Source: Oscillospiraceae bacterium
GTDB lineage: Bacteria; Bacillota; Clostridia; Oscillospirales; Oscillospiraceae
Reading direction: 5' to 3'
NCBI GenBank assembly: GCA_017440925.1
Contig: JAFSAP010000017.1
Location: 1-37,330, forward strand
DNA: 37,330 nucleotides
Part shown: piece by piece, positions 1,228 to 37,330 of the stretch
How positions within the stretch are numbered: the first letter of the stretch is position 1
Layout of the letters: every line of letters begins with the position of its first letter
The notes under the pieces: generated by a model
What the model saw: only the letters and a program-made list of their open reading frames with translations
Databases searched by the model: none
What the model was told of the DNA's origin: nothing
Translations under genes and position numbers: made by a program

Positions 1228-1818
1228 ATGAAAAAAGGAAATCATAATACGCAGGATTTTCCTTCTATAGAAATCCTGAAGAAAGAACTGAACCGGGAAC
1301 GGTATAAACGCCGATTCCGCCGGATTCTTCGCAGCACAGTCAACGCCCTCATCGTCGTGGCTGCTGTGGCTGCTCTGATCGCTACGCTGGTGCTCCCCGT
1401 TCTGCAGATTGCAGGTACCAGCATGGAACCCAATCTGAACGACGGCGACATTGTCGTAATGATGAAAACAGATCGCCTGCACACAGGTGACTTGTGCGCA
1501 TTCTATTATTCCAACAAAATACTGATTAAACGCATTATCGGCGCCCCAGGGGATCTTCTGTGGATCAATGACGACGGAACCGTTTACCTGAATGGCTCGG
1601 AATTGACAGAACCCTACATTACAGAAAAAAGCTTGGGGGAATGCGACATTGAATTTCCTTATCAGGTTCCGGAAAATTACTATTTTTTGATGGGCGACCA
1701 TCGCAAGACTTCCATTGACAGCCGCAGTTCTGTAATCGGCTGTATTGCGGAAGATCAGATCATTGGTAAGATTCTTTTCCGAGTCTGGCCGCTGAAGCAA
1801 TTCCTTTGGATGGGATAA
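1228..1818 (+). CDS. lepB: Signal peptidase I of the pilus cluster
   Basis: This 196-residue protein is a type I signal peptidase (family S26). It has a basic cytoplasmic N-terminus of about 38 residues and one membrane segment (about 39-61). The catalytic domain lies outside the cell. The nucleophile is Ser65 in GTSMEP and the general base is Lys101 in KRIIG. Box E is GDHRKTSIDSRS (156-167), the expected GDNR-type motif with His in place of Asn. It should remove signal peptides from exported pilin subunits or help assemble them, as the signal-peptidase-like SipA does in streptococcal pilus loci. All catalytic residues are present here, so it is probably an active enzyme. The gene lies between the coiled-coil gene and the adhesin in one operon. 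Confidence 0.9.
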   Translation: MKKGNHNTQDFPSIEILKKELNRERYKRRFRRILRSTVNALIVVAAVAALIATLVLPVLQIAGTSMEPNLNDGDIVVMMKTDRLHTGDLCAFYYSNKILIKRIIGAPGDLLWINDDGTVYLNGSELTEPYITEKSLGECDIEFPYQVPENYYFLMGDHRKTSIDSRSSVIGCIAEDQIIGKILFRVWPLKQFLWMG

Positions 1819-1859
1819 ACGCTCAATTTTAACACTTCACTATGAAAGGAGGAGGAAGC

Positions 1860-4800
1860 ATGCACTCATCTGCCGAACGTTATCTGCGCTTAGTAAACAA
1901 AGACAATTCCATCCGCAGGCATCTGCGCCAGTGTCTGATGCTTCTTTCTCTGGTCGTGGTGCTGTCCGTATCCTGGGGTCTGAAGCTCACCGGTATCACC
2001 ATGGCAGGCGAAGCTTTCTGTGGCAAGGAAGAGCATAGCCACAGCGAAGAATGCCCTCTGCAGACATTGATCTGCGAGTTGGAGGAATCCGAGGCGCACA
2101 TGCATACGGAGGCCTGCATTCTGCGGGAGTTGATCTGCGAGGAAGAAGAGATTCCCGCCCATACCCACAGCAAGGAATGCCTGAACAAAACGTTCGTCTG
2201 TACCTTGTCGGAAACCGAGGGGCACACCCACGGTACAGAATGCATTGAAAAAGAGCTAATCTGTCAGCTGGCAGAAGAACCTGCCCATTCCCACGAAGAG
2301 GGCTGCTACAGCCAAAAGCAGATCTGCCCTCTGGAAGAAACTGCTCCGCACACCCATGATGACAACTGCCACACAACCAAAATAATCTGTGGTCAGGAAG
2401 AATCGGAACTGCATACCCATGATGAAAGCTGTACATCCACAACTCTGACCTGCACCCTGGCAGAAACGGATGGACACGCCCATACAGATGCCTGCTTCGA
2501 AACACTTTTGAGCTGTCTGTTGACTGAAACTGAAGGTCATGTCCATAGTGATACTTGTTACCAGGAACTTCCCGGCTTTATCTGCGGTCTGGAGGAGCAT
2601 CCTCCCCATATGCACGATGATACCTGCTATCTGTATGAGGAAGGGAACTTTATCTGCGGTCTGGAGGAAACAGAAGGTCACAGTCACGAGGATGTCTGTT
2701 ATCAGTTCGGCATTGGTTTCGGTTGCGGATTAACAGAAGCAGATGCGCACGTCCATGTACTGGAGTGCATTACGCCCGAAACCCAGTTCGGCTGCGAAAA
2801 GGAGATTTCCGAAGGACATACCCATGCCGACAGCTGCTATGACACTTTGGAGGTATGCCCTCTTGAAGAGCATATCCACGACGAAAGCTGCTACAGCGAT
2901 ATCAACGCAGATATTGAAACCAGCGATGACTGGGAAATGACACTGGCGAATATCACCAGAAGTCCCAGTACCGCAAAAAATGTTCTTTCCGTAGCACAGG
3001 CTCAGCTGGGATATACCGAAAGCATCCTGAACTTTGAAGTGGATGAAAACGGTATCCGCCGGGGCATTACCCGGTACGGTCAGTGGTACGGAAACCCCTA
3101 CGGCGACTGGTCTTCCATGTTCACTTCTTTCTGCCTGTATTATGCAGGCGTGGATGCCCCCTTCAACGGCGGCCCTGAAGCCATGCGGCTGGAATGGGAA
3201 CAGGAAGGTCTGTTTATCCCGGTTCAGGAATATGCCCCCATGGTGGGTCACATACTGTTCCTGGACAGAACGCTGGATGGCCAGGCCGATGCCACCGCAA
3301 TCATCGAAGACTATGATGTAACCACCATTTTTGCAATCGAAGGCGATATTCCTCTGGAAACGGAAGAAATGCTGTTTGATGCCGTTGGACGGACCAGAAT
3401 CCCTATGGACGATCCCACGATTCTCGGTTACGGTATAATTCCCGATGATGCCATGATGATGGTGCTTCCCACCGGTGACACCAGTATAATTGCCACTACA
3501 ACACAATACCGGACTGATATGTTCACGGATGATGCTGTATTTGTGCTATATACCACCAGCGGCAGCAATACCTATGCTTTTGATGGCAGCGGCAATGCAA
3601 TTCCTGTTTATATCGATGCGGAAGGCAATATTACCTCGGATGCAGAAAACCCCGAGACACTGCTCTGGAGCTTTACTGCCTCCGGCGGTTCCAACAGCTA
3701 TCTGATTCAAAACGTCAGTACAGGACGGTATATGCATGCTTTCCCCAATAACGGTACAGGCGTTACCACATCCGGTGCTTATCCCAGTTCCCTGATTACC
3801 TCCGGAACTGGTGTGAAAATCAGAAGCAATACGGAATTCGCACGTCTGGATGCAGGCAGAGGTCAATTTGTCATGACCCAAAATCAGAATCTGGCTGCGG
3901 CATATCAATTCGGCATTCGCAACATGTACACTGTCTGGCTGGATGGTACCTGCGGTGGGATCATGTCTTTGGGTGGTTCTCCCAATGAAGCCTATCACAT
4001 ATCAAACGCTGACACGATTGTTCTTCCCACGCAGTGGCAGTCTCCTGACAAATACAGCTACACGTTAAGAGGTTGGTATGATGTCGTAAACAACGCCTAC
4101 TATCCACCCGGAGCAGAGGTGCCGATTACGGGTGATACCGTCTTCTATGCAGACTGGGTCGCCAGCAGTTATAACATCGGTCATTATAATTCCAAAGTGG
4201 CTGATACTGTCAGTACCAGAGACTTTGTCACAACCCGTATGTTTGACTACAATGCACTGTTTAATATTCAGTCTTCTTATGCAGACGTTAATGTGTCCGC
4301 ATCTTCTCACGAAGAAATCTGGAATATTATTTCCTCCGGTGCAAATGCATTCAACGGCGAACCCACACTGAATTATATTTTCCGTGACTGGGACCGGCGT
4401 AATGAGGATATCACCTATCCTGTTGGAAGTAGCAACCAAAATACCAATGGCGGTGTCTACTCCGGTCTTTATTCCAGCCATCTGAGAAATATTCTGTTCA
4501 GCACTGGCAATTCTTTTGATCCAAACACTGGAGCCGGAATCCTCGGCAAGCAGTATCTGGGCACTGGCGATCACCTGTTCCAATATGAAAGCAATCCCAA
4601 TCATCCCAATTACGGCTATTACTATTATGATTCCAGTTTGAATGCTGCATCCTATAATCAGAGTGCAGGACGATTCTATGTATATGATTATCTGGAGTGC
4701 ACCAGTGACTCTGCTGCCAACAATAAGTATTCCGACTTTCTTCCTTTGAATTCTCCTTACGCCAACACCAACGGTCAGGCCATTCCCACCTACAGCTATG

Positions 4801-6935
4801 GTGGTAATTATGGAGAATACAGTGGTACTACCCACTATAGATATGATGCACAGTACAATTCCGGTCAAAGCTCCGCCAACAACGTCGGAACCAATTATTT
4901 CTTCGGAATGAGTATTGATATCGATTTTTATCTGCCAAACAATCCCGGAACACGGGATGACAGTGGTTCCTATGGCAACCGTGACGTCTATGGTAAGGAA
5001 ATGCACTTTAAATTCTCCGGTGACGATGACGTCTGGGTGCTGGTGGATGGTCAGTTGGTACTGGACATCGGCGGCATTCACGGCATTGAAAGCGGTGATA
5101 TCAATTTTTCCTCCGGTGTTGTCACAGTTAACGGAACACAGACCGGATCCATTACCAGTCTGAATCCCGGCGATCATACTCTGACCATCCTTTATCTGGA
5201 ACGCGGCAGTTCTCAGTCCAATTGTGCCATTTACTTCAATCTGGCACCTCGCTTCAGTTTCAGCATCCAAAAGGAAGATATTCTGACGCAGGCCGTTTTG
5301 AATGGCGCAGAATTCTCCGTTTACACCGACAGAAACTGCACTGTTCCTGCCCAGCTTTGGGTCAGCAAAGCATCTCATGACAGAGGCGATACCCCCACCA
5401 ATGTTTTCACCGTCACCAACGGTGTTGCCAACATGTGGGGCATGGGTGCAGGCAATACCTATTATATCCGGGAGACAAAACCTCCTGACAATGCCGAATA
5501 TACCTACGCCAAAGGTATTATATGTGTATCCATCGACAAGCAGGGCCTTGCCTCATACAATGTAGAGCTGCTTGAGGAACCAAATGAGGATGGTACTTCC
5601 TCGGAAGTCTCTGTCGGCTTTACTGTGCATGGCTTCCGAATCGATGAGCAAACCCAAAATGCATATATCATTGCGACCAATGCACCTTCCTGGGTGAAAG
5701 AACTCACCAGTGTCCATGTCGAGAAAAAATGGAACGATTCTATCAACCATAACGGAGAATACGTAACCGTTTTTCTGACGATAACGGAACCTGACGGTAC
5801 AGTCAGACAGATCCGCGAGGTGATGCTGGGAAGTGAAAACAACTGGTCATATACCTGGGAGAATCTACCCAAGCACTATCAGGATGGCACTGCCATTCAA
5901 TATGGTGTGCAGGAGGTAAGTGTACCTGGATATATGGGGACTGTAGCAGTTATTGACTCGTCTTCCGTCGATTCCGGAAGCAGTAGTACTGTTGTCAGCA
6001 GTTTTGAAAATGCGCAGACATACCTGCTGAAAACACCGTATGGCTATCTGGCTGCGGCCAACAACCAGCTTATGCTTGTCAGCACTGAAGCTGAAGCCTT
6101 AGGTTCTGACAATGCCCAGTGGATTGCTGCCAACAACAGCGATGGTACCATAGTTCTGACAAACAAAGCCGGTCAGACACTATATTACAATAATTACGCA
6201 TTCCGGGCATCCTCCTCTCCCCAATCCACCCAAAATCTGCATTTTTCCAATGGTTTATTCTCCTATACCACACACTACAGCACATGGTCTGATACGCAGT
6301 ACCCGATCGATAACAGCAATGTCGTCGATAATATCACCTATAACCATATACTTTATTCCACCCAAAACAGCAGTAACGCAATGGTTATAACACCGCAGAA
6401 ACTGGTGACGATTGAGCCGGAAGAACCGGACGTTTCGGATGAGAACCTTGCTTTCCGCATTACCAATACCCCTCTGGATGAGGAAACGTCCGTAACTGTT
6501 CATAAAGTCTGGGATTACGGATTCCTTGGTCCCCAAACAGAGCATGAACAGGAATTGGTTACAGTCGCCCTTCTGGCCAACGGAAACTATACCGGACGCA
6601 CAGTTACCCTAAGTCTGAAAAACAGCTGGACGGCTACTTTCCAGGGCCTCCCCTATTCAGACAGTAACGGGAACAGAATTGTCTACACCGTTGAGGAACG
6701 ATGGACCTCCGATGATTGGATTCCTTATTATGGAGAAATCGAAATCAGTGATGGAGATCCGCCCACCTACAGTACCGTTATCACCAACGTAAACCGCTGG
6801 GGAACCGGTGTACAGCTCCCCTCTACGGGTTCGGCAGCCCGGATGATGTATGTACTCTGCGGTAGTGGCATAATTGCTGCTTCGCTGGTATATGGAATCG
6901 GATTGAGACGCAAAAGAGAAAGGAGGCCCGAATAG
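1860..6935 (+). CDS. Giant LPSTG-anchored adhesin / pilus tip protein
   Basis: The product has 1691 residues. The start is the ATG at 1860, preceded by AAAGGAGGAGG (1845-1855); an in-frame ATG at 1842 lies just before that site and is rejected. Order of parts: signal peptide with a hydrophobic core near residues 25-43; 14 tandem Cys/His units (54-344); a papain-like, CHAP-like domain (about 375-540) with Ser418 where the Cys is expected; a module resembling a beta-trefoil (about 560-690); an InlB-type repeat (about 735-770); a fibro-slime/PA14-like domain whose GDDDVW and DIGGIHG motifs lie near residues 1050-1080; a SpaA-like module; a Cna-B domain with VEKKW; a second trefoil-like stretch (about 1388-1470); and a Cna-B domain with VHKVW. 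The sorting signal is LPSTG (1653-1657), then a hydrophobic segment and an RRKRERR tail. It is probably the tip adhesin of the pilus built by the neighbouring genes. Its ligand is unknown. Confidence 0.85.
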   Translation: MHSSAERYLRLVNKDNSIRRHLRQCLMLLSLVVVLSVSWGLKLTGITMAGEAFCGKEEHSHSEECPLQTLICELEESEAHMHTEACILRELICEEEEIPAHTHSKECLNKTFVCTLSETEGHTHGTECIEKELICQLAEEPAHSHEEGCYSQKQICPLEETAPHTHDDNCHTTKIICGQEESELHTHDESCTSTTLTCTLAETDGHAHTDACFETLLSCLLTETEGHVHSDTCYQELPGFICGLEEHPPHMHDDTCYLYEEGNFICGLEETEGHSHEDVCYQFGIGFGCGLTEADAHVHVLECITPETQFGCEKEISEGHTHADSCYDTLEVCPLEEHIHDESCYSDINADIETSDDWEMTLANITRSPSTAKNVLSVAQAQLGYTESILNFEVDENGIRRGITRYGQWYGNPYGDWSSMFTSFCLYYAGVDAPFNGGPEAMRLEWEQEGLFIPVQEYAPMVGHILFLDRTLDGQADATAIIEDYDVTTIFAIEGDIPLETEEMLFDAVGRTRIPMDDPTILGYGIIPDDAMMMVLPTGDTSIIATTTQYRTDMFTDDAVFVLYTTSGSNTYAFDGSGNAIPVYIDAEGNITSDAENPETLLWSFTASGGSNSYLIQNVSTGRYMHAFPNNGTGVTTSGAYPSSLITSGTGVKIRSNTEFARLDAGRGQFVMTQNQNLAAAYQFGIRNMYTVWLDGTCGGIMSLGGSPNEAYHISNADTIVLPTQWQSPDKYSYTLRGWYDVVNNAYYPPGAEVPITGDTVFYADWVASSYNIGHYNSKVADTVSTRDFVTTRMFDYNALFNIQSSYADVNVSASSHEEIWNIISSGANAFNGEPTLNYIFRDWDRRNEDITYPVGSSNQNTNGGVYSGLYSSHLRNILFSTGNSFDPNTGAGILGKQYLGTGDHLFQYESNPNHPNYGYYYYDSSLNAASYNQSAGRFYVYDYLECTSDSAANNKYSDFLPLNSPYANTNGQAIPTYSYGGNYGEYSGTTHYRYDAQYNSGQSSANNVGTNYFFGMSIDIDFYLPNNPGTRDDSGSYGNRDVYGKEMHFKFSGDDDVWVLVDGQLVLDIGGIHGIESGDINFSSGVVTVNGTQTGSITSLNPGDHTLTILYLERGSSQSNCAIYFNLAPRFSFSIQKEDILTQAVLNGAEFSVYTDRNCTVPAQLWVSKASHDRGDTPTNVFTVTNGVANMWGMGAGNTYYIRETKPPDNAEYTYAKGIICVSIDKQGLASYNVELLEEPNEDGTSSEVSVGFTVHGFRIDEQTQNAYIIATNAPSWVKELTSVHVEKKWNDSINHNGEYVTVFLTITEPDGTVRQIREVMLGSENNWSYTWENLPKHYQDGTAIQYGVQEVSVPGYMGTVAVIDSSSVDSGSSSTVVSSFENAQTYLLKTPYGYLAAANNQLMLVSTEAEALGSDNAQWIAANNSDGTIVLTNKAGQTLYYNNYAFRASSSPQSTQNLHFSNGLFSYTTHYSTWSDTQYPIDNSNVVDNITYNHILYSTQNSSNAMVITPQKLVTIEPEEPDVSDENLAFRITNTPLDEETSVTVHKVWDYGFLGPQTEHEQELVTVALLANGNYTGRTVTLSLKNSWTATFQGLPYSDSNGNRIVYTVEERWTSDDWIPYYGEIEISDGDPPTYSTVITNVNRWGTGVQLPSTGSAARMMYVLCGSGIIAASLVYGIGLRRKRERRPE
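2019..2891 (+). repeat. Fourteen tandem Cys/His units in the adhesin
   Basis: Residues 54-344 of the adhesin consist of 14 units. The internal form is C-x2-(E/T)-(E/T)-x3-H-x-H-x3-C, 15 residues long, joined by linkers of 6 residues or, towards the end, 8-9. The first unit (CGKEEHSHSEEC) and the last (CPLEEHIHDESC) are 12 residues long, each lacking three residues before the first His. In all, 28 Cys and 28 paired His are retained while the other positions vary. That pattern suits metal ligands or disulfides under selection rather than recent expansion of a DNA repeat. Confidence 0.9.
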
Positions 6936-7027: not shown

Positions 7028-8518
7028 ATGAAAAAGATTATCTCTTTTACCCTCGCACTTATGATGATCCTGACTCTGGCAACCACAGCATTTGCTGATG
7101 ATGCAACAGGTTCCATCACTATCAATGGCATCGGCACTGAGGCTACTTACTCAATTTACAAGCTGCTGGATCTGGAAAGCTACAACCAGGAAACCGGTGC
7201 TTACTCCTACACAGTTAACAGTGCCTGGAAAAATTACTTTGAGACATCTGATGCTCTGCAGTATTTTGCCATTGACAATGCCGGTTATGCTACCTGGATT
7301 GCTTCCGAAGACGGCAGCACCGTTGCTGCATTTGCCAAGAATGCACTTGCATATGCCAAGGCAAACGGCATCGCTCCTGTAAAGTCCTCTGCAAATGCCG
7401 GTGAATTTGTGGTCACCGAAGGTTCCGGCAAATTCTCCGGTCTGGAGCTGGGTTACTATCTGGTAGACTCCACTATGGGTGCACTGTGCGGTCTGACTAC
7501 CACCAATCCCGATGCTTCCATCAATGCCAAGAACGCCAAACCCACCATTGACAAGCAGGTTCAGGAAGATTCCACCAACCAGTGGGCTGAAGAAAACACC
7601 GCCGACGTTGGTCAGACTGTCCATTACCGTGTCACCATCAATGTTCATGCCGGTGCTGAAAACTATGTTCTGCACGACGTTATGAGTGCTGGCCTCACCT
7701 TTGATAAGGTAACCAAGGTCGAACACATCGACACCTCCAGCAGCACTCCCGTTACCAAGACTGCTGTTGCAGGTACTGATTATACCGTCTTTACGGATCC
7801 TGATATTACACCCGATGTAACTACGGATAACGTAAGCGATGACTGCACGCTTGAGGTTCGTTTCTCCAAGGCATTCTGCGATTCTCTGGAAACCAATGAC
7901 AAAGTAATCGTATACTATCAGGCAATGCTGAACCGTAATGCCATCGTTGCAGAAAACGGCAATCCCAACGAAACATGGCTGCAGTATGGCGAAAACCATA
8001 CAACTACCCACGACACTGTAAAGACCTACACCTTTGGTATTGACATTGTAAAAACCGACTCTCAGAACGCCCTGCTGGACGGCGCTCAGTTCAAGATTTA
8101 TGATGCTGAAACCAAGGGAAACGAAGTGGCTGTTGTCCTGATGGATGATGGTGTAACTTATCGCCGTGCAAGAGAAGATGAGACCGGTATCCCCATTGTT
8201 GTCAAGGATGGTAAGGTACGTGTTGTCGGCTTCGACAACGGTACATACTACCTGGAAGAAACCGTAGCTCCTCAGGGTTACAACAAGCTGACTACACGCC
8301 AAAAATTCATCATTTCCGATGGTAATCTGGATGCCACCTTCAATGGTGACATTTACTCCACCGGCTCCGGTGTCCACGTGGTGAACAAGACCGGCACTAT
8401 GCTGCCTGAAACCGGTGGCATGGGCACTACCCTGTTTGTCACCATTGGTGCCATGATGGTGATGGCTGCTGGCGTTCTGCTGGTGACCAAGAAGAGAATG
8501 TCCATGATTGAAGACTAA
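7028..8518 (+). CDS. Major pilin (backbone subunit), LPETG-anchored
   Basis: This 496-residue protein has the layout of a Gram-positive backbone pilin. A signal peptide ends near residue 24 (TTAFADD). An N-terminal domain (about 25-175) is followed by a fimbrial D2-type isopeptide domain (about 177-330; VGQTVHYRVTI). Then comes a SpaA-like domain (about 335-455) with KTDSQNALLDGAQFKIYD and the E-box YYLEETVAPQGY, where Lys, Asn and Glu would form an internal isopeptide bond. The sorting signal LPETG is at 459-463, followed by a hydrophobic segment and a KKR tail. The Lys near TIDKQ (about residue 180) sits where the pilin-motif Lys is usually found. AAAGGAAA lies 7 bases before the ATG. The class C sortase encoded next should polymerise it. 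Confidence 0.92.
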   Translation: MKKIISFTLALMMILTLATTAFADDATGSITINGIGTEATYSIYKLLDLESYNQETGAYSYTVNSAWKNYFETSDALQYFAIDNAGYATWIASEDGSTVAAFAKNALAYAKANGIAPVKSSANAGEFVVTEGSGKFSGLELGYYLVDSTMGALCGLTTTNPDASINAKNAKPTIDKQVQEDSTNQWAEENTADVGQTVHYRVTINVHAGAENYVLHDVMSAGLTFDKVTKVEHIDTSSSTPVTKTAVAGTDYTVFTDPDITPDVTTDNVSDDCTLEVRFSKAFCDSLETNDKVIVYYQAMLNRNAIVAENGNPNETWLQYGENHTTTHDTVKTYTFGIDIVKTDSQNALLDGAQFKIYDAETKGNEVAVVLMDDGVTYRRAREDETGIPIVVKDGKVRVVGFDNGTYYLEETVAPQGYNKLTTRQKFIISDGNLDATFNGDIYSTGSGVHVVNKTGTMLPETGGMGTTLFVTIGAMMVMAAGVLLVTKKRMSMIED

Positions 8519-8610: not shown

Positions 8611-9447
8611 ATGCAAAGCAGAAAATCTACTTTTATTCTTTTACTATCTTTTTTCATAGGCCTGTCCGTGCTGTTATACCCATCCATCAGCAGCTACTGG
8701 AACTCCAAAACCCAGTCGGAAGCCATTGTCGACTATGAAGCCATGCTTGCCAACTACAAGCCGGAGGATTACACAGCTGTTTTTGAAGATGCAGATGCCT
8801 ATAACCGCGCTCTTGCACAGCTGGAAATACCATTTATTGAGTATAAAGCTCTCAATGACCAATATAAGAATGCACTAAATGTCAGCGGAACCGGCATGAT
8901 GGGCTATATCACCGTTCCAAAAATCAATCAGGAACTCCCACTGTATCATGGCACCTCTGAATCGGTGCTTGCTACCGCCTGCGGTCACTTTGAAGGCAGC
9001 AGTCTGCCGATTGGCGGCGAAAACACCCACTGTGTGGTTTCTGCTCACAGAGGTCTGCCGACAGCCGTGTTATTCACCCATCTGGATCGTATGGAAATCG
9101 GCGATACGTTTTATTTCACCATTCTGGACCGGAAATTCACCTATGAAGTGGATCAGATCCGCATTGTAGAACCCCATGATACCAGTCTGATTCAAATTGA
9201 AGAAGGCAAAGACTACTGCACCTTGCTCACCTGCACCCCCTATGGCATTAACACCCAGCGGCTGCTGGTTCGGGGACATCAGATTGACGAAACCCAGAAA
9301 CGTCATATCTACATCGCCAATGAAGCTTACCGCATTGATACGCTGATTGTCATGCCCATTGTGGCGCTGCCCATGCTTGCAGTTCTGATGATTTATGTCA
9401 TGTTTGCGCCTGTGAAGAAAGAATCTCTTGGAGAGGATTTGCTATGA
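8611..9447 (+). CDS. srtC: Class C (pilin-polymerising) sortase
   Basis: This 278-residue transpeptidase joins the Thr of a pilin sorting signal to a Lys of the next subunit. It has an N-terminal membrane segment (about 8-28), a catalytic domain facing outward, and a C-terminal membrane segment (about 243-266) typical of class C. The catalytic residues are present: His146 in SAHRG, Cys208 in LLTCTPYG and Arg217 in NTQRLLVRG. The usual lid motif (DPF/DPW) before the catalytic domain was not found; residues 48-65 hold only acidic and aromatic positions (DYTAVFEDADAY). The gene begins 92 bases after the pilin, beyond a strong hairpin, and its stop overlaps the next start in ATGA. This is the only sortase in the cluster with intact catalysis. 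Confidence 0.93.
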   Translation: MQSRKSTFILLLSFFIGLSVLLYPSISSYWNSKTQSEAIVDYEAMLANYKPEDYTAVFEDADAYNRALAQLEIPFIEYKALNDQYKNALNVSGTGMMGYITVPKINQELPLYHGTSESVLATACGHFEGSSLPIGGENTHCVVSAHRGLPTAVLFTHLDRMEIGDTFYFTILDRKFTYEVDQIRIVEPHDTSLIQIEEGKDYCTLLTCTPYGINTQRLLVRGHQIDETQKRHIYIANEAYRIDTLIVMPIVALPMLAVLMIYVMFAPVKKESLGEDLL

Positions 9448-10355
9448 GAAAACACCTTCTGCCTCTGATCATCCTGCTGGCGTTCCTGGTGGCACAGCCT
9501 CTGTCTGCCAACGCGATCACACCGCTGGAACCGAATCGAAAATGCAGCCTCAAAGTTCATTTCACCAAGGACGATTACCGATTCTCCAACCTTGAGACCC
9601 GGATCTACCGGGTGGCAGAAGCCCATTCGGACGGTACCTTCGATCTGATTGCGCCCTTCTCAGGCTCTTCCGTCAGCATCCACGGCATAAAGTCCCAGCG
9701 GGAATGGAATGATGCAGCTGTCACTTTGCTGTCCTACATTGTCGACAGAAAGATCCAGCCGGATCATACCGTACTGTCCGATGCCCAGGGCACTGCTTCC
9801 TTTACGGATCTTCATACCGGTCTGTATCTGGTTCTGGGGAATACTGCGGAAAATGACATTGGAATCTATACCTTTGAAGATTTTTTTGTATATTTGCCCA
9901 CCCCGCTGGAGAGCGAAGGCTTTTCCTATGACATGGAAGCCCGTCCAAAGCCCGGCGAATTTGTCCCCAAAACGGAGTATACCGTGAACAAACTGTGGAA
10001 GGACTCCGGCTATACAAGCAAGCGTCCCAAGTCCGTCACCGTGGATATTTACAAGGATGCTGTGCTTTACGAAACCGTTATTCTGGATTCTTCCAACAAC
10101 TGGAGCTATAGCTGGAAGACACCGGAGGACAGCAGCAAGTGGACCGTGGCGGAAAAGGATGTGCCTGATAGCTACACGGTAACCATCAGCTCCAGCGGAA
10201 GTGTTTTCAGTATCACCAACAGCATTAAAACCACTCCGGGGTCTCCTCCCAAAACGGGCGATACCTTCCCGCTCTGGAATTATGTGATTGCCATGAGTAT
10301 TTCCGGCTTCCTGCTGCTGATCTTTGGAATCTGGCACAAGAGGAAATCACAATGA
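9444..10355 (+). CDS. Minor pilin with a PPKTG sorting signal
   Basis: This 303-residue surface protein has a signal peptide (about 1-24, ending SANA). An N-terminal domain (about 30-165) resembles pilin subunits (DLHTGLYLVLG). A Cna-B domain (about 177-260) contains VNKLW, VAEKDV and FSITNS, the Lys, Glu and Asn positions for an isopeptide bond. The sorting signal is PPKTG at 268-272, followed by a hydrophobic segment and HKRKSQ. The first position is Pro rather than Leu, a variant seen in some basal or accessory pilins. It overlaps the sortase gene by 4 bases and the next gene by 4, so the three are translationally coupled. It is probably the base or an accessory subunit of the pilus. Confidence 0.87.
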   Translation: MRKHLLPLIILLAFLVAQPLSANAITPLEPNRKCSLKVHFTKDDYRFSNLETRIYRVAEAHSDGTFDLIAPFSGSSVSIHGIKSQREWNDAAVTLLSYIVDRKIQPDHTVLSDAQGTASFTDLHTGLYLVLGNTAENDIGIYTFEDFFVYLPTPLESEGFSYDMEARPKPGEFVPKTEYTVNKLWKDSGYTSKRPKSVTVDIYKDAVLYETVILDSSNNWSYSWKTPEDSSKWTVAEKDVPDSYTVTISSSGSVFSITNSIKTTPGSPPKTGDTFPLWNYVIAMSISGFLLLIFGIWHKRKSQ

Positions 10356-10933
10356 AAAAACGGATAAACTTTTTTGAAGTATTGGGAATTCTGCTGATTG
10401 TCTGCAGCCTGGGTGTGCTTCTGTTTACGCAACTTCATAGCCAGTACACCAAGAAAAAAGCCGCTGAAATCACCTGTAAAATCGAAGCCGCTTTGCCGGA
10501 AACAACACCGGGTTTTCCAGGAGATTATTCAGACCCTGTCATGCCTGTGCTGCAGGTAGAGGGGAAAGATTATGTGGGACTCCTGAACATTCCCGCCTAT
10601 GGACTTTCGGTACCCATTGTCAATGAATGGAGCAGTTTTCATGTATTCTCCTGCCCTGCCCGTTTTTACGGTAGTGTGTATGACAACACGATGATCATCG
10701 GCGGAAATGATCAGACTGGGCAATTTGATTTCTTCGATCGCATGAATCCTGGTGATCATATAAAGATTACAGATATGCTGGGCACAGAATTTGCCTATGC
10801 CATTGACCGCATTGACCGTGCCAAATCTGCAGACTATGAACACCTGGCTTCCGGCGGTTATCCTCTGACACTATTCGTGCGCAGCGCCTACTCTGCAGAG
10901 TATATTCTTGTACGATGCAGTACTACATTCTGA
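10352..10933 (+). CDS. Sortase-fold protein lacking the catalytic triad
   Basis: This 193-residue protein has an N-terminal membrane anchor (about 8-27) and a domain that reads as a clostridial sortase: YVGLLNIPAYGLSVPIV (74-90), a C-x4-YGS segment (101-108) and LTLF....ILVRC near the end. Active relatives have an A-A-H-N-type His motif, TCT and an Arg in the last strand. Here those positions are Asn119 (IIGGND), Arg177 (LFVRS) and Tyr184, so all three catalytic residues appear to be gone. The reading frame is intact and overlaps the minor pilin gene by 4 bases, which suggests it is maintained rather than decaying. It could be a non-catalytic assembly partner or housing for the pilus base. 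Confidence 0.78.
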   Translation: MKKRINFFEVLGILLIVCSLGVLLFTQLHSQYTKKKAAEITCKIEAALPETTPGFPGDYSDPVMPVLQVEGKDYVGLLNIPAYGLSVPIVNEWSSFHVFSCPARFYGSVYDNTMIIGGNDQTGQFDFFDRMNPGDHIKITDMLGTEFAYAIDRIDRAKSADYEHLASGGYPLTLFVRSAYSAEYILVRCSTTF

Positions 10934-19059: not shown

Positions 19060-19437
19060 TTATACATTCTTCTTGGCATCCAGATAAGCAGTCAGCTTGT
19101 CCAGGGTATCGGGAAGCATTTCTACAATCCGGTCGGCAGTGGTATTGGCAGGTGCCGCCACAGGCATCATCCGGACATTGCCGTCTTTAACAATCAAAAA
19201 GCAGATGGGGGTCACCTTGACACCGCCGCCGACACCGCCGCCAAAAGGATTTTCTGCGCCGGTTTTGTTGACAAAATCGCTTCCACCGCCGCCAAAGCCA
19301 ACACTGACCTTGCTGACAGGGATGATGGTAACACCATCGGGAGTAGTGATGGGTTCACCGATGACGGAATTCACATCCACCATCTCACGGATCTTCTGAA
19401 TGGTACTTTCCAGCATGTTGGGAAGTTTCTGGCTCAT
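19060..19437 (-). CDS. ytfJ: GerW-family sporulation protein YtfJ
   Basis: This 125-residue protein matches the YtfJ/GerW family: an N-terminal helix (MLESTIQKIREMVDVNSVIG), then GEPITTPDGVTIIPVSKVSVGF, a Gly-rich loop, and a C-terminal part with ICFLIVKDGNVRMMPV. It is needed for normal germination in Bacillus spores, with an unknown biochemical role. It overlaps the DUF2953 gene by 4 bases (ATGA), a coupling common in Clostridia. Confidence 0.94.
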   Translation of the reverse strand: MSQKLPNMLESTIQKIREMVDVNSVIGEPITTPDGVTIIPVSKVSVGFGGGGSDFVNKTGAENPFGGGVGGGVKVTPICFLIVKDGNVRMMPVAAPANTTADRIVEMLPDTLDKLTAYLDAKKNV

Positions 19438-20087
19438 TTCACAGCACCGCCTTTTCTTTTCTTCTTGATTTTTAAAAATTCAATAAGAGCCCGCACCGCA
19501 AATTTCAGCACTGCGGCAAGGAGTCTGCCCAGCGTAATGGTCAGATCCAGATGGGCAATCACCAGAGTTTGAGATGCGGTAAAATCGCACTCCACCTCAA
19601 TGTTTCTTTTTTTGATAACGAACCATTTTTCCAGCTGTGGCATCAAGTTGCCCACAGCTGCCCAGGCCCGTCCGTAATTCACTGCCAGGTCGCAGGGATC
19701 ATCCGCTGCAAGAATCAGCTTCAGCTGAAGATCGTTCAGCCGCAGCTTCCGGCGAAAATCTCCAAGGAAGTCCAGGGCGGTTTTCACCAGGGGCAGGAAA
19801 TCCAACAGGCTGCCGCCTTTTTCCGATTTCGGTTTTTTCTCCTTGGGAGGCTTGGGCGGCTGGGGTGGTTTCGGAAGGTCATCTTCTGCCTGTGGTTCTG
19901 AAGGTGTCTTTTTCTTTGCCATCTTCTTTTTTTCCTTCTTTTCTTTTGGGGCCAGGGGGAATACTTTGATCTTCAGCGGGCCGGCAATGATTTTTACCAG
20001 CACACCTTCAGAATTATAGCGGATGCGGACACCCAGAGGTAGCACCGCCAGAAGGAACAGGATCCCCGCTGTGATCAGCCAGCCCAT
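19434..20087 (-). CDS. DUF2953 membrane protein
   Basis: This 217-residue protein has an N-terminal membrane segment (about 3-19), then a short beta region (VRIRYNSEGVLVKIIAGPLKIKVFP). A Lys/Pro-rich linker (about 45-95) follows, and a C-terminal domain with a DLTITLGRLLAAVLKF hydrophobic helix. This is the DUF2953 layout. The family is found next to ytfJ in spore formers, so a spore or envelope role is likely, but none is established. The start overlaps the scpB stop by one base (TAATG). Confidence 0.85.
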   Translation of the reverse strand: MGWLITAGILFLLAVLPLGVRIRYNSEGVLVKIIAGPLKIKVFPLAPKEKKEKKKMAKKKTPSEPQAEDDLPKPPQPPKPPKEKKPKSEKGGSLLDFLPLVKTALDFLGDFRRKLRLNDLQLKLILAADDPCDLAVNYGRAWAAVGNLMPQLEKWFVIKKRNIEVECDFTASQTLVIAHLDLTITLGRLLAAVLKFAVRALIEFLKIKKKRKGGAVK

Positions 20088-26896: not shown

Positions 26897-27871
26897 ATGC
26901 TTTTATCTGTCGTTCTGTTTGCTGTTGGCCTCGTCCTGCTGATTAAGGGCGGCGACTGGTTCGTTGATGGTGCTACCGGTATTGCCAAGCGCTTCAACCT
27001 GCCTGATATCGTCGTCGGTGCCACCGTGGTTTCCATCGGCACCACCCTGCCCGAAGTCATGGTTTCCACCACCGGCGCTCTGCAGGGTTCCGGTGCTATG
27101 GCTTACGGCAATGCCATTGGCTCCATCATCTGCAACACTGCACTGATCGCCGCCATTTCCATCACCTGCAACCCCGGTCCCGTGAACACCAAGTCCATGA
27201 AGACCCCCGCCATTTTCTTCTTCTGTTCTGCTGCCCTGTACTGCCTGGCTTCTTATGTTCTGGGCACCTTCCCCCGCTGGATGGGCTTTGTCATGCTGGC
27301 CATCTTCGTTGTCTACATGATCACCACTGTCCGCAACGGTATGAAGAATCCCGATGCTGCTCATGAAGAGGAAGAAGAAGGTGGCAAGGAGCGCACTCTG
27401 ATCATGGAGCTGGTTCTGCTGGTCATCGGTGCTGCTGTCATCGCTGTGGGCGCTGATCTGCTGGTCGAGCACGGCCAGGTCATTGCTCTGGGTCTGGGCG
27501 TTCCCGAAACCGTCGTCGCCCTGCTGTTCGTTGCTCTGGGTACCTCCCTGCCCGAACTGGTCACTACCATCACCTCCCTCAGAAGCGGCCATGCCTCCCT
27601 GGGTGTGGGCAACGTCATTGGTGCCAACGTCTTTAACCTGGTTCTGGTTTCCGGCGTTGCTGTCTCCCTGGCTCCCTTTGATGTTCCCTGCGAGAACACC
27701 CTGCTGAATACCGGTCTGAACATGTCCCTGGTCTTCGAGATCCCCGTGATGCTGGGCGTCATGTCCCTGATGATCTTCCCCACCCTGGCTTCCAAGAAGC
27801 TGGCCCGTTGGCAGGGCATCCTGCTGCTGGGCATCTACCTGGCTTTCTGCGTCTGCCAGTTCGTACTGTAA
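26897..27871 (+). CDS. Calcium/sodium antiporter (CaCA family)
   Basis: The 324-residue membrane protein has about ten hydrophobic segments in two related halves. The alpha motifs are present: VVSIGTTLPEVMVSTTGAL in the first half (about residues 45-65) and VALGTSLPELVTTITSLRSG in the second (about 215-235). An acidic loop (HEEEEEGGKERT, near residue 155) separates them. It should exchange Ca2+ for Na+ across the cytoplasmic membrane. AAAAGGAGAG precedes the ATG. Codon use is extremely biased (CTG, ACC, GCC, TCC), like the pyruvate oxidoreductase gene at the end of the window and unlike its neighbours, so strong expression is likely. Confidence 0.92.
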   Translation: MLLSVVLFAVGLVLLIKGGDWFVDGATGIAKRFNLPDIVVGATVVSIGTTLPEVMVSTTGALQGSGAMAYGNAIGSIICNTALIAAISITCNPGPVNTKSMKTPAIFFFCSAALYCLASYVLGTFPRWMGFVMLAIFVVYMITTVRNGMKNPDAAHEEEEEGGKERTLIMELVLLVIGAAVIAVGADLLVEHGQVIALGLGVPETVVALLFVALGTSLPELVTTITSLRSGHASLGVGNVIGANVFNLVLVSGVAVSLAPFDVPCENTLLNTGLNMSLVFEIPVMLGVMSLMIFPTLASKKLARWQGILLLGIYLAFCVCQFVL

Positions 27872-33442: not shown

Positions 33443-33479
33443 AAAAAGATCCCGCTCCGGTTTGGAGCGGGATCTTTTT
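33443..33479. terminator. Bidirectional terminator between the LRR gene and pncC
   Basis: AAAAAGATCCCGCTCC (33443-33458) pairs perfectly with 33464-33479 around GGTTT. The 16-bp stem has A and T runs on the two sides, so it serves both convergent genes; its end overlaps the pncC stop. Confidence 0.92.
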
Positions 33480-33942
33480 ATGGATTTTGACTGAGTACCA
33501 GCTTTAGTGCCGCCGCTATGGTCTGCTGCCGGACTTCTTCTCTGGTTCCTGTGAAAATACGGTGCACAGAAAGCGATTGTTTTTCATCTGCATAGCCGAT
33601 ATAAACGGTACCCACAGGGTTTCCATACGCATCGCCACCAGGGCCAGCCAGACCGGTAACAGAAACTGCAACATCAGCATTCAGCAGTTTTCGTACACCA
33701 ACAGCCATGGCCTCCGCCACAGGTGCGGAAACCGCACCATGCTGGGCCAAAACATCTCCAGGTACGCTCAAAATATGCTCTTTTACCTGGTTGGTATAGC
33801 TGATGACACCACCCTTATACACGGAAGAAGCACCGGAAACTGCTGTCAGTGCAGCGCCGATACCGCCACCGGTGAGGCTCTCTGCCGTCACCAGTGTCTT
33901 TCCCGAAAGGGCGTTCAGCACATCACTGCACAGCTTCGTCAT
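33478..33942 (-). CDS. pncC: Nicotinamide-nucleotide amidase (CinA C-terminal domain)
   Basis: This 154-residue protein consists only of the CinA C-terminal domain. It hydrolyses nicotinamide mononucleotide to nicotinate mononucleotide in NAD salvage. Diagnostic segments are TLVTAESLTGGGIGAAL, SSVYKGGVISYTNQVKE, SVTGLAGPGGDAYGNPVGTVYIG and the C-terminal REEVRQQTI. The ATG at 33942 overlaps the end of thiI by 20 bases, with a weak AAGGT site in front; the frame extends to a TTG at 33966 but with less support. Translation probably depends on coupling to thiI. Confidence 0.92.
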   Translation of the reverse strand: MTKLCSDVLNALSGKTLVTAESLTGGGIGAALTAVSGASSVYKGGVISYTNQVKEHILSVPGDVLAQHGAVSAPVAEAMAVGVRKLLNADVAVSVTGLAGPGGDAYGNPVGTVYIGYADEKQSLSVHRIFTGTREEVRQQTIAAALKLVLSQNP

Positions 33943-35113
33943 AGTAATTGACCTTGATCTTTTCAATGTTTTCCAGAGCGCGCTGGATCAGTGCTTCCCT
34001 GTCCAGATTCTTTTCTGCATTTAACAGCTGACCAAGGGTAGGCTTGGTTTTGGGATGCTTGGGAGTAAAGACGGTACAGCAATCCTCATAGGGCAGAATA
34101 GAGGTTTCCATGGTTCCGATTTTCCGGGCGATGGTAACGATCTCTTCCTTATCAAAACCAATGAGGGGCATAAAAATAGGCATATCCACCACAGCGCCGG
34201 TAACACCCATGGCTTCCATGGTCTGGGATGCCACCTGGCCCAGATTTTCACCCGTGATCAGGGCACCGCAGCCATCATGTTTGGCGATCCGCATGCTGAT
34301 CTCCATCATGAAGCGGCGCATGATGAGGGTAAAATATTCCTCGGGGCAGTTGTCCCGGATGGCTTCCTGGATTTCCGTGAAGGAAACCACATTGATAGTC
34401 ATACGGCCGGTATACTTTGTCACCAGACGGCCCAGCTCAATAACCTTGTCCTTGGCCAGCTGGGAGGTATAGGGATAGGAGAAGAAATGAACGGCTTCAA
34501 TTTCCACACCCCGTTTACCGATCATATAGGCCGCCACAGGAGAGTCGATGCCGCCGGACAGCAGGATCATGGCTCTGCCGCCCACACCGGTAGGCAGACC
34601 GCCGGCACCGGGTTCTGCAGGGCCATGGACGTAAGCTGCCAGGTCACGGACTTCCACATAGACCGTATAATCAGGATGATGCACATCCACCTCCACGGTA
34701 GGATGGGCCTCTGCAAGGCGGCCGCCGATTTCCTGAGAGAGCTGGATGGAGGTCAAGGGGAACCGCTTGTCGGAACGCTTGCTTTCCACCTTGAAGGACT
34801 TGGCGCAGTCCAGATCATCGCCCAGATAATTTTCAATGGCTTCAAAAATGGCATCCGTATTCTTTTCGCAGGGCCGGCAGCGACACAGGCTGACCACACC
34901 AAAAATGCTGCGGCAGGCTTCCCAGGCAGCATCCACATCACAGGCATCATCCATGGGTTCCACATAGACGGTGGACTGCATCAGATACACGTCAAAATTG
35001 CCGTACAGCTTCATGCGGCGGCGGACATTCTGGCGCAGACGGGATTCAAACTGGCGCTTGTTGGCACCTTTCAGGACGATCTCGCCCAATTTTAACAAAA
35101 AAATCTCTTTCAT
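33923..35113 (-). CDS. thiI: tRNA 4-thiouridine synthase ThiI
   Basis: The 396-residue enzyme adenylates tRNA U8 and transfers sulfur to make 4-thiouridine; it can also serve thiamine biosynthesis. An N-terminal ferredoxin-like region (1-60) and THUMP domain (about 60-165) precede the PP-loop ATPase domain with SGGIDSP (186-192). A C-terminal rhodanese domain is absent, as usual in Firmicutes. The Cys pair DCCTVF near residue 345 fits the known active-site Cys of this shorter form. A cysteine desulfurase gene is often adjacent but is not seen here. Confidence 0.95.
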   Translation of the reverse strand: MKEIFLLKLGEIVLKGANKRQFESRLRQNVRRRMKLYGNFDVYLMQSTVYVEPMDDACDVDAAWEACRSIFGVVSLCRCRPCEKNTDAIFEAIENYLGDDLDCAKSFKVESKRSDKRFPLTSIQLSQEIGGRLAEAHPTVEVDVHHPDYTVYVEVRDLAAYVHGPAEPGAGGLPTGVGGRAMILLSGGIDSPVAAYMIGKRGVEIEAVHFFSYPYTSQLAKDKVIELGRLVTKYTGRMTINVVSFTEIQEAIRDNCPEEYFTLIMRRFMMEISMRIAKHDGCGALITGENLGQVASQTMEAMGVTGAVVDMPIFMPLIGFDKEEIVTIARKIGTMETSILPYEDCCTVFTPKHPKTKPTLGQLLNAEKNLDREALIQRALENIEKIKVNYYDEAVQ

Positions 35114-35249: not shown

Positions 35250-36764
35250 TTATCGGTTTCCCAAATTGACTGCCCGGTACTGAATTGCCTCAGCGATGTG
35301 CTGGGGTTCAATGGTTTCACTGCCCTCCAGATCTGCCACGGTTCTGGCAACCTTCAGGATCCGGTCATAGCTTCTGGCTGTCAGCCCCATGGTCTCAAAG
35401 GCATTTTTCATTAGCTCGGCACATTCTCCGCTGAGCTCGCAGTAACGGCGCATTTCATCCGGGCCCATCCGGGCGTTGCACATACCGCCACTGCCAAACC
35501 GCTTGTTCTGAAGATCCCTTGCACTGTTGACCCGCTTCTTGACAGCAGCAGAGGGTTCTGCCTCTGCACGACTGCGCAGATCCTCAAAATGTACTGCCGG
35601 AACTTCCACAACAATATCGATCCGGTCCAGCATAGGGCCGGAAATCCGGCTGCGGTAGCTATCCACTGCGGAATCTGAGCAGCGGCACCGGCCGGAAGGA
35701 TCGCCATACCAGCCGCACTTGCAGGGATTCATGGCGCAGACCAGCATGCATTCTGCCGGATAGGTCACGGTTCCGGATACCCGGGAAATGGTAACTTTGC
35801 CATCCTCCAAAGGCTGGCGCATGATATCCAGTGTATCTTTCTTGAATTCCGGAAGCTCATCCAGGAACAGCACACCCTTATGGGCCATGGATATCTCACC
35901 AGGTCTGGGATTGCTGCCGCCACCGGCAAGTCCTGCATTGGACACCGTATGATGGGGCGACCGGAAAGGACGGGTCATCACCAGCGGTTTTTTCGATGTC
36001 AGAAGGCCCATTACAGAATAGATCTGGCTGACTTCCAGAGACTCCTCCCAGGTCATATCCGGCAAAATGGAAGGGAGCCGCTTGCTGAGCATACTCTTGC
36101 CGGAACCGGGCGGGCCAATCAACAGCACATTATGGCTTCCAGCTGCCGCGACTTCCAGCGCACGCTTTACATTCTCCTGTCCCAGAACATCCTTAAAATC
36201 CAGCATCTGCGCTGCTTCGGGACTGGGTTCCCATACAGGCGCTTCCGGCAAAACAGTCTCTCCGTTCAATCCCGCTGCAAGCTCCTGCACCGTATGTACC
36301 GGGATCACCTTTGGGCCTCTTGCAAGGGTGGCCTCCGGTGCGTTTTCTGCCGGAACCATCAGACATTGAATGCCCTCATTCTTTGCTGCCAATGCCATTG
36401 GGAGAACACCAGAAACCGGGCGGACGGAACCATCCAGTCCCACCTCTCCCAAAAATGCCGTTGTATTTTTAGGCCGGCGGACACTGCCGCAGGCACAGAG
36501 AATACTGATCAGGATCGGCAGGTCATAGTGGGTTCCCGCCTTTTTCAGATTGGCCGGTGCCAGATTGACCGTGATCCGGCTGACTGGAAAGGCCAGTCCG
36601 CTGGACTTGGCTGCGGCACGCACCCGTTCCCGGGCCTCTTTTACAGCAGCATCAGGCAGGCCCACGATATCAAAGCCGGGCAGACCGTTGGAAATATAAC
36701 ATTCCGCTGTCACGGCTTTGCCCTGGATGCCGGTAATGCCCAGGGTTTGCACACTGCAGATCAT
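35250..36764 (-). CDS. comM: ComM/YifB-type magnesium-chelatase-like ATPase
   Basis: The ATG at 36764 follows GGAG at 8 bases and gives 504 residues; an upstream in-frame ATG at 36833 lies in the promoter. The protein has an N-terminal ChlI-like domain (about 15-130; SNGLPGFDIVGLPDAAVKEARERV). The central AAA+ module has Walker A GPPGSGKS (about 216-223), then GEISMAHKGVLFLDELPEF and RPLEDGKVTISR. The C-terminal part has a Cys cluster (CAMNPCKCGWYGDPSGRCRC) and ARSYDRILKVARTVADLEG. In transformable bacteria ComM is a branch-migration helicase; in most others the role is unknown. Confidence 0.95.
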   Translation of the reverse strand: MICSVQTLGITGIQGKAVTAECYISNGLPGFDIVGLPDAAVKEARERVRAAAKSSGLAFPVSRITVNLAPANLKKAGTHYDLPILISILCACGSVRRPKNTTAFLGEVGLDGSVRPVSGVLPMALAAKNEGIQCLMVPAENAPEATLARGPKVIPVHTVQELAAGLNGETVLPEAPVWEPSPEAAQMLDFKDVLGQENVKRALEVAAAGSHNVLLIGPPGSGKSMLSKRLPSILPDMTWEESLEVSQIYSVMGLLTSKKPLVMTRPFRSPHHTVSNAGLAGGGSNPRPGEISMAHKGVLFLDELPEFKKDTLDIMRQPLEDGKVTISRVSGTVTYPAECMLVCAMNPCKCGWYGDPSGRCRCSDSAVDSYRSRISGPMLDRIDIVVEVPAVHFEDLRSRAEAEPSAAVKKRVNSARDLQNKRFGSGGMCNARMGPDEMRRYCELSGECAELMKNAFETMGLTARSYDRILKVARTVADLEGSETIEPQHIAEAIQYRAVNLGNR

Positions 36765-36799
36765 ACTTTCATCTCCTGTGGACATACTTCTCAGATTAA

Positions 36800-37330
<531 letters not shown>

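What the first reader, a model, noticed from the sequence alone, without database searches (positions are those of the whole stretch)
2019..2891. Fourteen-unit Cys/His array with shorter capping units on a pilus adhesin
Seen: 14 units of C-x(2-7)-H-x-H-x3-C in adhesin residues 54-344, keeping all 28 Cys and 28 HxH histidines while other positions vary. The first and last units are both 12 residues long, each missing the same three residues before HxH, as if they cap the array. Inference: such density and spacing suits metal binding (Zn, Cu, Ni or Fe/heme) or disulfide-linked beads. A surface metal scavenger or metal-stiffened stalk at a pilus tip would be unusual. I do not know a described domain with this signature.
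Basis: partly seen in the sequence, partly recalled or inferred. Interest (0 to 1): 0.75.

Follow-up and report, generated by a model that had tools for sequence, protein, structure and literature searches.

The report
Zinc-clamped bead chain on pilus tip
A bacterial protein, predicted to sit on the outer tip of a pilus, carries a chain of fourteen short cysteine/histidine units closed by a shorter unit at each end; the units are likely held in shape by metal ions such as zinc rather than by disulfide bonds, and none of the domain libraries searched has a name for them.

Summary
In detail: 14 units of C-x(4 or 7)-HxH-x3-C lie at 2019-2891, with 28 Cys and 28 paired His; units 1 and 14 are three residues shorter. 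It is not chance (at most 2 units in 5000 composition-matched shuffles) and not a recent duplication.

It belongs to a large, unnamed repeat family; the named relatives are Clostridia. No Pfam, NCBIfam, PHROGs or PADLOC model and no convincing PDB entry matched the array. In 29 close homologs each ligand column is kept in 397 of 397 ungapped cells, the Glu at C1+4 in 362 of 392, other columns in 43%. The caps are real: searching the genus with only the domain behind the array gave 12 loci (own included), all with an upstream array that starts and ends with a short unit, around zero to twelve internal units.

The genus almost lacks disulfide enzymes (VKOR 0, DsbB 0, Thioredoxin_4 1, DSBA 2 of 61 genomes), and Cys is 9.3% inside units, 0.54% outside. 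I favour one Cys2His2 metal site per unit, most likely zinc: a metal-clamped bead chain in front of a dead CHAP domain and a beta-trefoil at the pilus tip. Metal binding, the metal and the role are inferred; none was measured.

The parts
1860..2018 (+). N-terminal export signal of the tip adhesin, ending just before the first array cysteine
   Evidence: AAAGGAGGAGG before ATG 1860; hydrophobic segment in translation; signal function inferred
2019..2054 (+). N-cap unit, C-x4-HxH-x3-C, residues 54-65
   Evidence: short first unit in 116 of 120 homologs
2073..2837 (+). twelve internal units, C-x7-HxH-x3-C, residues 72-326
   Evidence: AlphaFold2 model, 10-residue blocks mostly pLDDT 81-92
2856..2891 (+). 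C-cap unit, C-x4-HxH-x3-C, residues 333-344
   Evidence: short last unit in 109 of 120 homologs
2913..3449 (+). CHAP-like domain with Ser at the catalytic Cys position (YGDWSSMF): predicted dead enzyme
   Evidence: PHROG endolysin match E 5.4e-5; second model with CHAP endolysin Ly7917 among the Foldseek matches; Ser read. Borders approximate, from the model
3471..3947 (+). beta-trefoil, lectin-like domain (predicted fold)
   Evidence: Foldseek, top match a beta-trefoil, E 8e-5; RicinB_lectin_2 just under the Pfam cut-off. Borders approximate
4986..5234 (+). fibro-slime / PA14-like domain
   Evidence: TIGR02148 46.9 bits, cut-off 45
5256..5546 (+). SpaA (prealbumin-like) domain
   Evidence: PF17802
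5712..5945 (+). Cna_B domain (best of two stretches)
   Evidence: PF05738
6807..6920 (+). LPSTG-type sortase anchor region of the adhesin
   Evidence: PF00746, below its cut-off; LPSTG seen in the translation
1228..1818 (+). signal peptidase I directly before the adhesin
   Evidence: TIGR02227, PF10502
7028..8518 (+). backbone pilin (SpaH/EbpB family)
   Evidence: NF033902, TIGR04226
8611..9447 (+). class C (pilus) sortase
   Evidence: NF033745
9444..10355 (+). minor pilin with Cna_B domain
   Evidence: PF05738
10352..10933 (+). second sortase-like protein (weak match)
   Evidence: PF04203 below its cut-off

Best explanation
The array is a capped chain of fourteen short units in which each unit's two cysteines and two histidines likely grip one metal ion, most probably zinc, giving a predicted bead chain at the free end of a predicted pilus-tip adhesin. 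Shown: the ligand pattern, its invariance in close homologs, the two short end units, the operon, and Ser in place of the catalytic Cys in the CHAP-like domain that follows. Inferred: after export, each 12- or 15-residue loop would close around a metal without any oxidase, the 6-9-residue linkers would join the beads, and the strongly acidic chain would act as a structural extension whose stiffness depends on bound metal. The number of internal units would set its length, and the short units would close its ends. Inferred last step: together with the predicted trefoil it would serve contact with glycans, other cells or host surfaces. In this reading the metal clamp stands in for the disulfide-rich repeats that a reducing cell envelope cannot make.
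For: Ligand columns C1, H1, H2, C2 each kept in 397 of 397 ungapped cells over 14 units and 29 homologs (9 gapped cells each), Glu at C1+4 362 of 392, the remaining unit columns 1604 of 3767 (43%, three lines added); the 29 are close relatives picked from the 120 listed. Cys 9.32% inside units with their linkers, 0.54% outside, 120 homologs. Oxidative-folding families in the genus: VKOR 0/61, DsbB 0/61, Thioredoxin_4 1/61, DSBA 2/61; the same searches rang in 3, 6, 7 and 8 of 14 control genomes. Of 15 genomes with the array by profile, and G006, G011, G458 found otherwise, only G477 has any of the four. Cysteines beyond two per unit show no preference for even numbers (45 odd, 44 even, 31 arrays with none, of 120). 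P0076 has a unit with Arg for C1 and the other three ligands kept. Caps 12 of 12 in loci found without using the array. AlphaFold2 gives a short helix ending at C2 in 13 of 14 units and the same pair of bridges in 10 of 12 internal units (my reading of the DSSP line).
Against: No metal was modelled or measured, and no atomic coordinates were available, so ligand distances are unchecked. pTM 0.37 leaves the overall shape open; the first 20 and last 30 or so residues of that model are at pLDDT 44-70, and the last three units in the second model are at about 47-62. Strands 21 residues apart may pair between neighbouring units, which would make a ribbon or solenoid rather than separate beads. Ligands are not invariant in the wider set of 120: a few units lose H1 alone and keep both Cys (3 clear of 4 listed), and one in P0016 loses both His and keeps both Cys, which fits a disulfide better than a metal site. 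An SdbA-type oxidase or small-molecule oxidants could still make disulfides (PMC12453122, passages). Other exported window proteins are not Cys-poor (1.10-2.01%). No zinc-uptake family or Zur-like site was found near.
Confidence: 0.56

Rival explanations
1. Disulfide-linked beads: the two cysteines of each unit form a disulfide and the HxH pair serves something else.
For: A few units keep both Cys and lose the first His (P0040, P0082, P0098) or both His (P0016). Units without C1 tend to be matched by a lone C1 elsewhere in the same array (P0056, P0062, P0078, P0080, P0087, P0097; L073; L066, L070, L074, L075), so a lone Cys half may need a partner.
Against: VKOR and DsbB absent and DsbA-type families almost absent in 61 genus genomes; His as invariant as Cys in 29 close homologs; odd Cys totals in 45 of 120 arrays.
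Confidence: 0.17
2. Surface metal scavenger or buffer: the array collects zinc (or copper, nickel, iron) for uptake.
For: High ligand density, up to 40 units in a protein (two of 120, second arrays counted in); surface zinc-binding proteins tied to uptake exist in Corynebacterium diphtheriae (PMC12445094, abstract and passages).
Against: No zinc, copper, nickel or iron uptake family among 27 window proteins scanned (a sodium/calcium exchanger lies at 26897-27871), no Zur-like site beyond chance. Fixed caps suggest architecture rather than storage.
Confidence: 0.13
3. Metal-bridged zipper: arrays of neighbouring pili or cells pair through shared metal ions, as the G5-E repeats of staphylococcal Aap do with zinc.
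For: Repeats at the exposed end of a predicted adhesin; Aap precedent for zinc-dependent homophilic adhesion (PMC9802226, abstract).
Against: No G5 domain among the Pfam matches; each unit already holds four ligands, enough for a closed site; the chain is strongly acidic (66 D+E against 8 K+R), so like chains would repel.
Confidence: 0.14

Closest known systems
Classical C2H2 zinc fingers and zinc knuckles (definition recalled)
   Same: Four Cys/His ligands in a short unit, tandem arrays, conserved ligands in varying sequence
   Different: Ligand order Cys-His-His-Cys with HxH-x3-C, unit of 12-15 residues, exported; no Pfam zinc-finger match in the array
Streptococcal polyhistidine triad (Pht) proteins (motif recalled; family named in PMC12445094)
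   Same: Repeated His-rich metal motifs on the surface of Gram-positive bacteria
   Different: Pht motif HxxHxH without Cys; no Pfam match here
C. diphtheriae ZnuE/ZnuF/ZnuG HxD/HxH proteins (PMC12445094, abstract and passages)
   Same: HxH on cell-wall proteins, zinc-linked
   Different: HxD and HxH are about 150 residues apart, one or two copies in these three; tied to a zinc transporter locus
Staphylococcal Aap/SasG G5-E repeats (PMC9802226, abstract)
   Same: Repeat region of a long surface adhesin with zinc dependence and a lectin domain
   Different: Large beta-sheet-rich repeats that join molecules with zinc; no such Cys/His unit (recalled)
Sortase-assembled pili (SpaH/EbpB type)
   Same: Class C sortase, isopeptide pilin, LPXTG-type subunits
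   Different: The large subunit carries the unnamed Cys/His array plus a dead CHAP domain
Eukaryotic disulfide-rich repeats such as EGF modules (recalled)
   Same: Small cross-linked modules strung into long extracellular chains
   Different: Cross-link here is likely a metal ion, in a genus almost without disulfide enzymes

Membership tests
Sortase-assembled pilus operon | class C sortase next to pilin genes | tested here: met
   NF033745 262.5 bits, cut-off 160
Sortase-assembled pilus operon | LPXTG backbone pilin with isopeptide domains | tested here: met
   NF033902 and TIGR04226 over cut-off
Sortase-assembled pilus operon | adhesin located at the pilus tip | not testable with these tools
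   inferred from size, domains and gene order only
Any named domain family, for the array | profile match over a curated cut-off | tested here: not met
   Pfam, NCBIfam, PHROGs, PADLOC show none in the array over cut-off (one stray Pfam line at E 0.099); PDB by sequence one weak hit, E 0.0033, to the designed protein SAKe6BR, by profile none, by fold none convincing
C2H2 zinc finger | ligand order Cys-Cys-His-His and Pfam match | tested here: not met
   order is Cys-His-His-Cys; no Pfam match
C2H2-type metal site (works like) | four ligands conserved together | tested here: met
   397 of 397 for each ligand in 29 close homologs; exceptions exist in the wider 120
C2H2-type metal site (works like) | metal actually bound, one per unit | not testable with these tools
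   needs ICP-MS or structure
Polyhistidine triad proteins | HxxHxH motif / Pfam match | tested here: not met
   array motif is C-x4/7-HxH-x3-C; no Pfam match
Aap/SasG G5-E adhesins | G5 domain | tested here: not met
   not among Pfam matches
CHAP amidase/peptidase (domain behind the array) | catalytic Cys | tested here: not met
   YGDWSSMF, Ser at the Cys position
CHAP amidase/peptidase (domain behind the array) | CHAP fold | tested here: inconclusive
   Foldseek to CHAP endolysin Ly7917 E 2.2e-4 but 271 columns at rmsd 17.4; PHROG endolysin E 5.4e-5 over residues 92-245 of the fragment; no Pfam CHAP match in the window protein, though homolog P0047 has one at the same place
Disulfide-linked repeat | oxidative-folding machinery in the organism | tested here: not met
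   VKOR, DsbB 0 of 61; Thioredoxin_4 1 of 61; DSBA 2 of 61; own genome 0, but only 68% complete. SdbA-type oxidases not searched

The most novel reading that the evidence does not exclude
Anaerobic bacteria that cannot make disulfides outside the cell evolved a metal-for-disulfide building block: an unnamed, capped Cys-His-His-Cys bead repeat, strung from two to about forty units per protein, that folds only around zinc. At the pilus tip it is a metal-set rod, floppy without metal and stiff with it, so that local zinc tunes how far and how firmly the tip reaches. In sister arrays where a C1-only half-unit and a C1-less half-unit sit far apart, the two complete one metal site over a distance and fold the chain back on itself.
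Probability: 0.3. Interest if true: 0.82.

Novelty: new variant of a known kind. Interest (0 to 1): 0.6.

Why it matters
The array has 1264 protein hits at E up to 1e-3 (120 of them seen), yet no domain library searched names it; where a source named the organism it was a Clostridia-type bacterium. If the units bind metal, it would show how anaerobes build stable small extracellular repeats without disulfides, and it would add metal availability to the factors that may control pilus adhesion. The claim is cheap to test on a recombinant fragment.

Full report
OBSERVATION. The reading frame 1842-6935 (best start ATG 1860, after AAAGGAGGAGG) encodes 1691 aa. Residues 54-344 hold 14 units, C-x4-HxH-x3-C for the first and last and C-x7-HxH-x3-C for the twelve between, with 28 Cys and 28 paired His. 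Shuffled arrays of the same composition gave at most 2 units in 5000 trials. The long units are on average 30% identical at non-ligand positions and 55% at DNA level, and no DNA tandem repeat is found, so the array is old and the ligands look selected.

SURROUNDINGS. Before the adhesin lie a coiled-coil-like protein (715-1215, weak matches only) and a signal peptidase I (1228-1818); after it a SpaH/EbpB-type backbone pilin (7028-8518), a class C sortase (8611-9447), a minor pilin (9444-10355) and a weak sortase-like protein (10352-10933). The adhesin continues after the array with a CHAP-like domain that has Ser instead of the catalytic Cys, a predicted beta-trefoil, a fibro-slime/PA14-type domain, SpaA and Cna_B domains and an LPSTG-type anchor. 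Trefoil and CHAP folds come from a second AlphaFold2 model (mean pLDDT 77.7) searched against the PDB; the trefoil match is good, the CHAP match is loose. A further 20 window proteins were scanned with Pfam (three likely genes at 33478-33966, 33923-35113 and 35250-36833 were not): housekeeping functions, transporters and a Na/Ca exchanger, no zinc, copper, nickel or iron uptake family.

FAMILY. A search with residues 50-360 of the 1842 frame found 1264 proteins at E up to 1e-3, of which the best 120 are listed (P0001 is the window's own protein). Counting all full units of each of these 120 proteins, the first has the short spacing in 116 and the last in 109; among 1715 units between, 1252 have spacing 7 and 210 spacing 4; proteins hold 8 to 40 units. 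A second search limited to shorter proteins found 428, 120 listed; the first unit is short in 107 of 119 with at least two units. These include array-CHAP proteins with an intact catalytic Cys and no LPXTG anchor, such as P0196 and P0201. In the first set, a CHAP-like motif was recognised in 93 of 120, mostly 69 residues after the last array Cys, with Ser in 75, Cys in 12 and other residues in 6. By profile, 15 of 61 genomes of the genus and 3 of 398 of the phylum, the window's own included in both, pass E 1e-5; three more genus genomes (G006, G011, G458) were found otherwise, so the profile count is a lower bound. The spread is patchy.

CAPS TESTED WITHOUT THE ARRAY. To avoid choosing by the array, I searched 61 genus genomes with only residues behind it (window 2901-3560). 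This gave 12 places in 11 genomes, the window's own among them. All 12 have an array upstream, directly behind the signal segment, and in all 12 the first and the last unit before the CHAP-like domain have spacing 4 (ten counted and seven of these read in full; L072 and L073). L069 has the two short units and nothing between; L068 and L071 have one internal unit (spacing 13 and 8); L064 and L066 have twelve. So the architecture is N-cap, a variable number of internal units, C-cap. Short units are not only caps: L066, L067 and the second arrays behind CHAP in P0078, P0087 and L073 have runs of short units.

METAL OR DISULFIDE. In the alignment of 29 homologs (chosen by me from the better-ranked of the 120) to the window array, C1, H1, H2 and C2 are each kept in 397 of 397 ungapped cells, with 9 cells gapped in each; the Glu at C1+4 is kept in 362 of 392 and the remaining unit columns in 1604 of 3767. 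MAFFT may favour matching these residues, but the contrast is very large. In the wider 120 there are exceptions: H1 lost alone in 3 clear units, both His lost in one unit of P0016, C1 replaced in one unit of P0076. Genus genomes lack VKOR (0/61) and DsbB (0/61) and nearly lack Thioredoxin_4 (1/61) and DSBA (2/61); the searches rang in 3, 6, 7 and 8 of 14 control genomes. Of the array genomes only G477 has a DSBA match. A 2025 paper searched clostridia with DSBA, DsbB and VKOR models, three of the four that I used, and notes that obligate anaerobes tend to exclude Cys from exported proteins, yet that some secrete disulfide proteins with DsbA-like proteins lacking a partner (PMC12453122, abstract and passages). 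Here Cys is 0.54% outside the units and 9.32% inside in 120 homologs. In the window, the adhesin outside the array and the two pilins have 0.36-0.64%, 14 proteins that I took as cytosolic (one, 19434-20087, probably membrane-bound) average 1.63%, and three other exported proteins have 1.10-2.01%: Cys avoidance is clear in the pilus proteins but not in every exported one. Of 120 arrays 45 have an odd Cys total; among the 89 with Cys beyond two per unit, 45 are odd and 44 even: no pairing preference.

STRUCTURE. AlphaFold2 with 30 sequences gives mean pLDDT 83.8, blocks from residue 31 to 280 at 81-92, lower at both ends, pTM 0.37. By my reading of its DSSP line, a short helix ends at C2 in 13 of 14 units, and 10 of 12 internal units show bridges at C1+5 and at H1. 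No convincing PDB fold match.

MECHANISM. Most likely each unit closes around one metal ion, probably zinc (0.56 for the combined reading). Shown: pattern, conservation in close homologs, caps, near absence of oxidases. Inferred: metal, bead-chain mechanics, role at the tip. The tip position follows from general knowledge of sortase pili and was not tested.

UNEXPLAINED. Some arrays have one unit without C1 and, elsewhere, one C1 without HxH-x3-C: P0056, P0062, P0078 and P0087 in that order, P0080 and P0097 in the reverse order. Among the 12 genus loci, L066, L070, L073, L074 and L075 have both kinds, L067 has a unit lacking C1 and HxH plus a lone C1, and by my reading the other six have neither. 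P0076 has the first kind without the second. The two halves together make one full ligand set, which suggests, but does not show, a long-range site; common descent can explain much of the co-occurrence. The window's own array has no half-units.

VERDICT. A real, unnamed repeat domain with true end caps in many homologs; metal clamp likely, function open.

Noticed in passing
window 2913-3449: CHAP-like domain behind the array has Ser for the catalytic Cys; 75 of 93 homologs with a recognised motif share this, 12 keep Cys, so a peptidoglycan-hydrolase fold seems to have been reused as a non-enzymatic module.
   Followed up: partly
P0056, P0062, P0078, P0080, P0087, P0097; loci L066, L067, L070, L073, L074, L075: Half-units occur in complementary pairs far apart in the same array: one lacks C1, one has only C1.
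   Followed up: partly
P0078, P0087, L073: A second array of alternating short units follows the CHAP-like domain, so that domain is enclosed by two arrays.
   Followed up: no
P0196, P0201: Array-CHAP proteins without LPXTG anchor, with intact catalytic Cys and a C-terminal Cys/His tail (CKCKCHK-like).
   Followed up: no
P0155: N-terminal signal and first cap run into an M23 peptidase domain on a 1356-base contig; may be a chimeric assembly.
   Followed up: no
window 1228-1818: The pilus operon has its own signal peptidase I just before the adhesin; it may be dedicated to the adhesin's signal sequence.
   Followed up: no
units of 120 homologs: Glu four residues after the first Cys is almost as fixed as the ligands (84% in 1206 unique long units; 362 of 392 cells); a second-shell role is possible.
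   Followed up: no
window 26897-27871: Sodium/calcium exchanger gene (PF01699), the only metal-ion transporter seen in the scanned window proteins, about 20 kb downstream of the adhesin.
   Followed up: no
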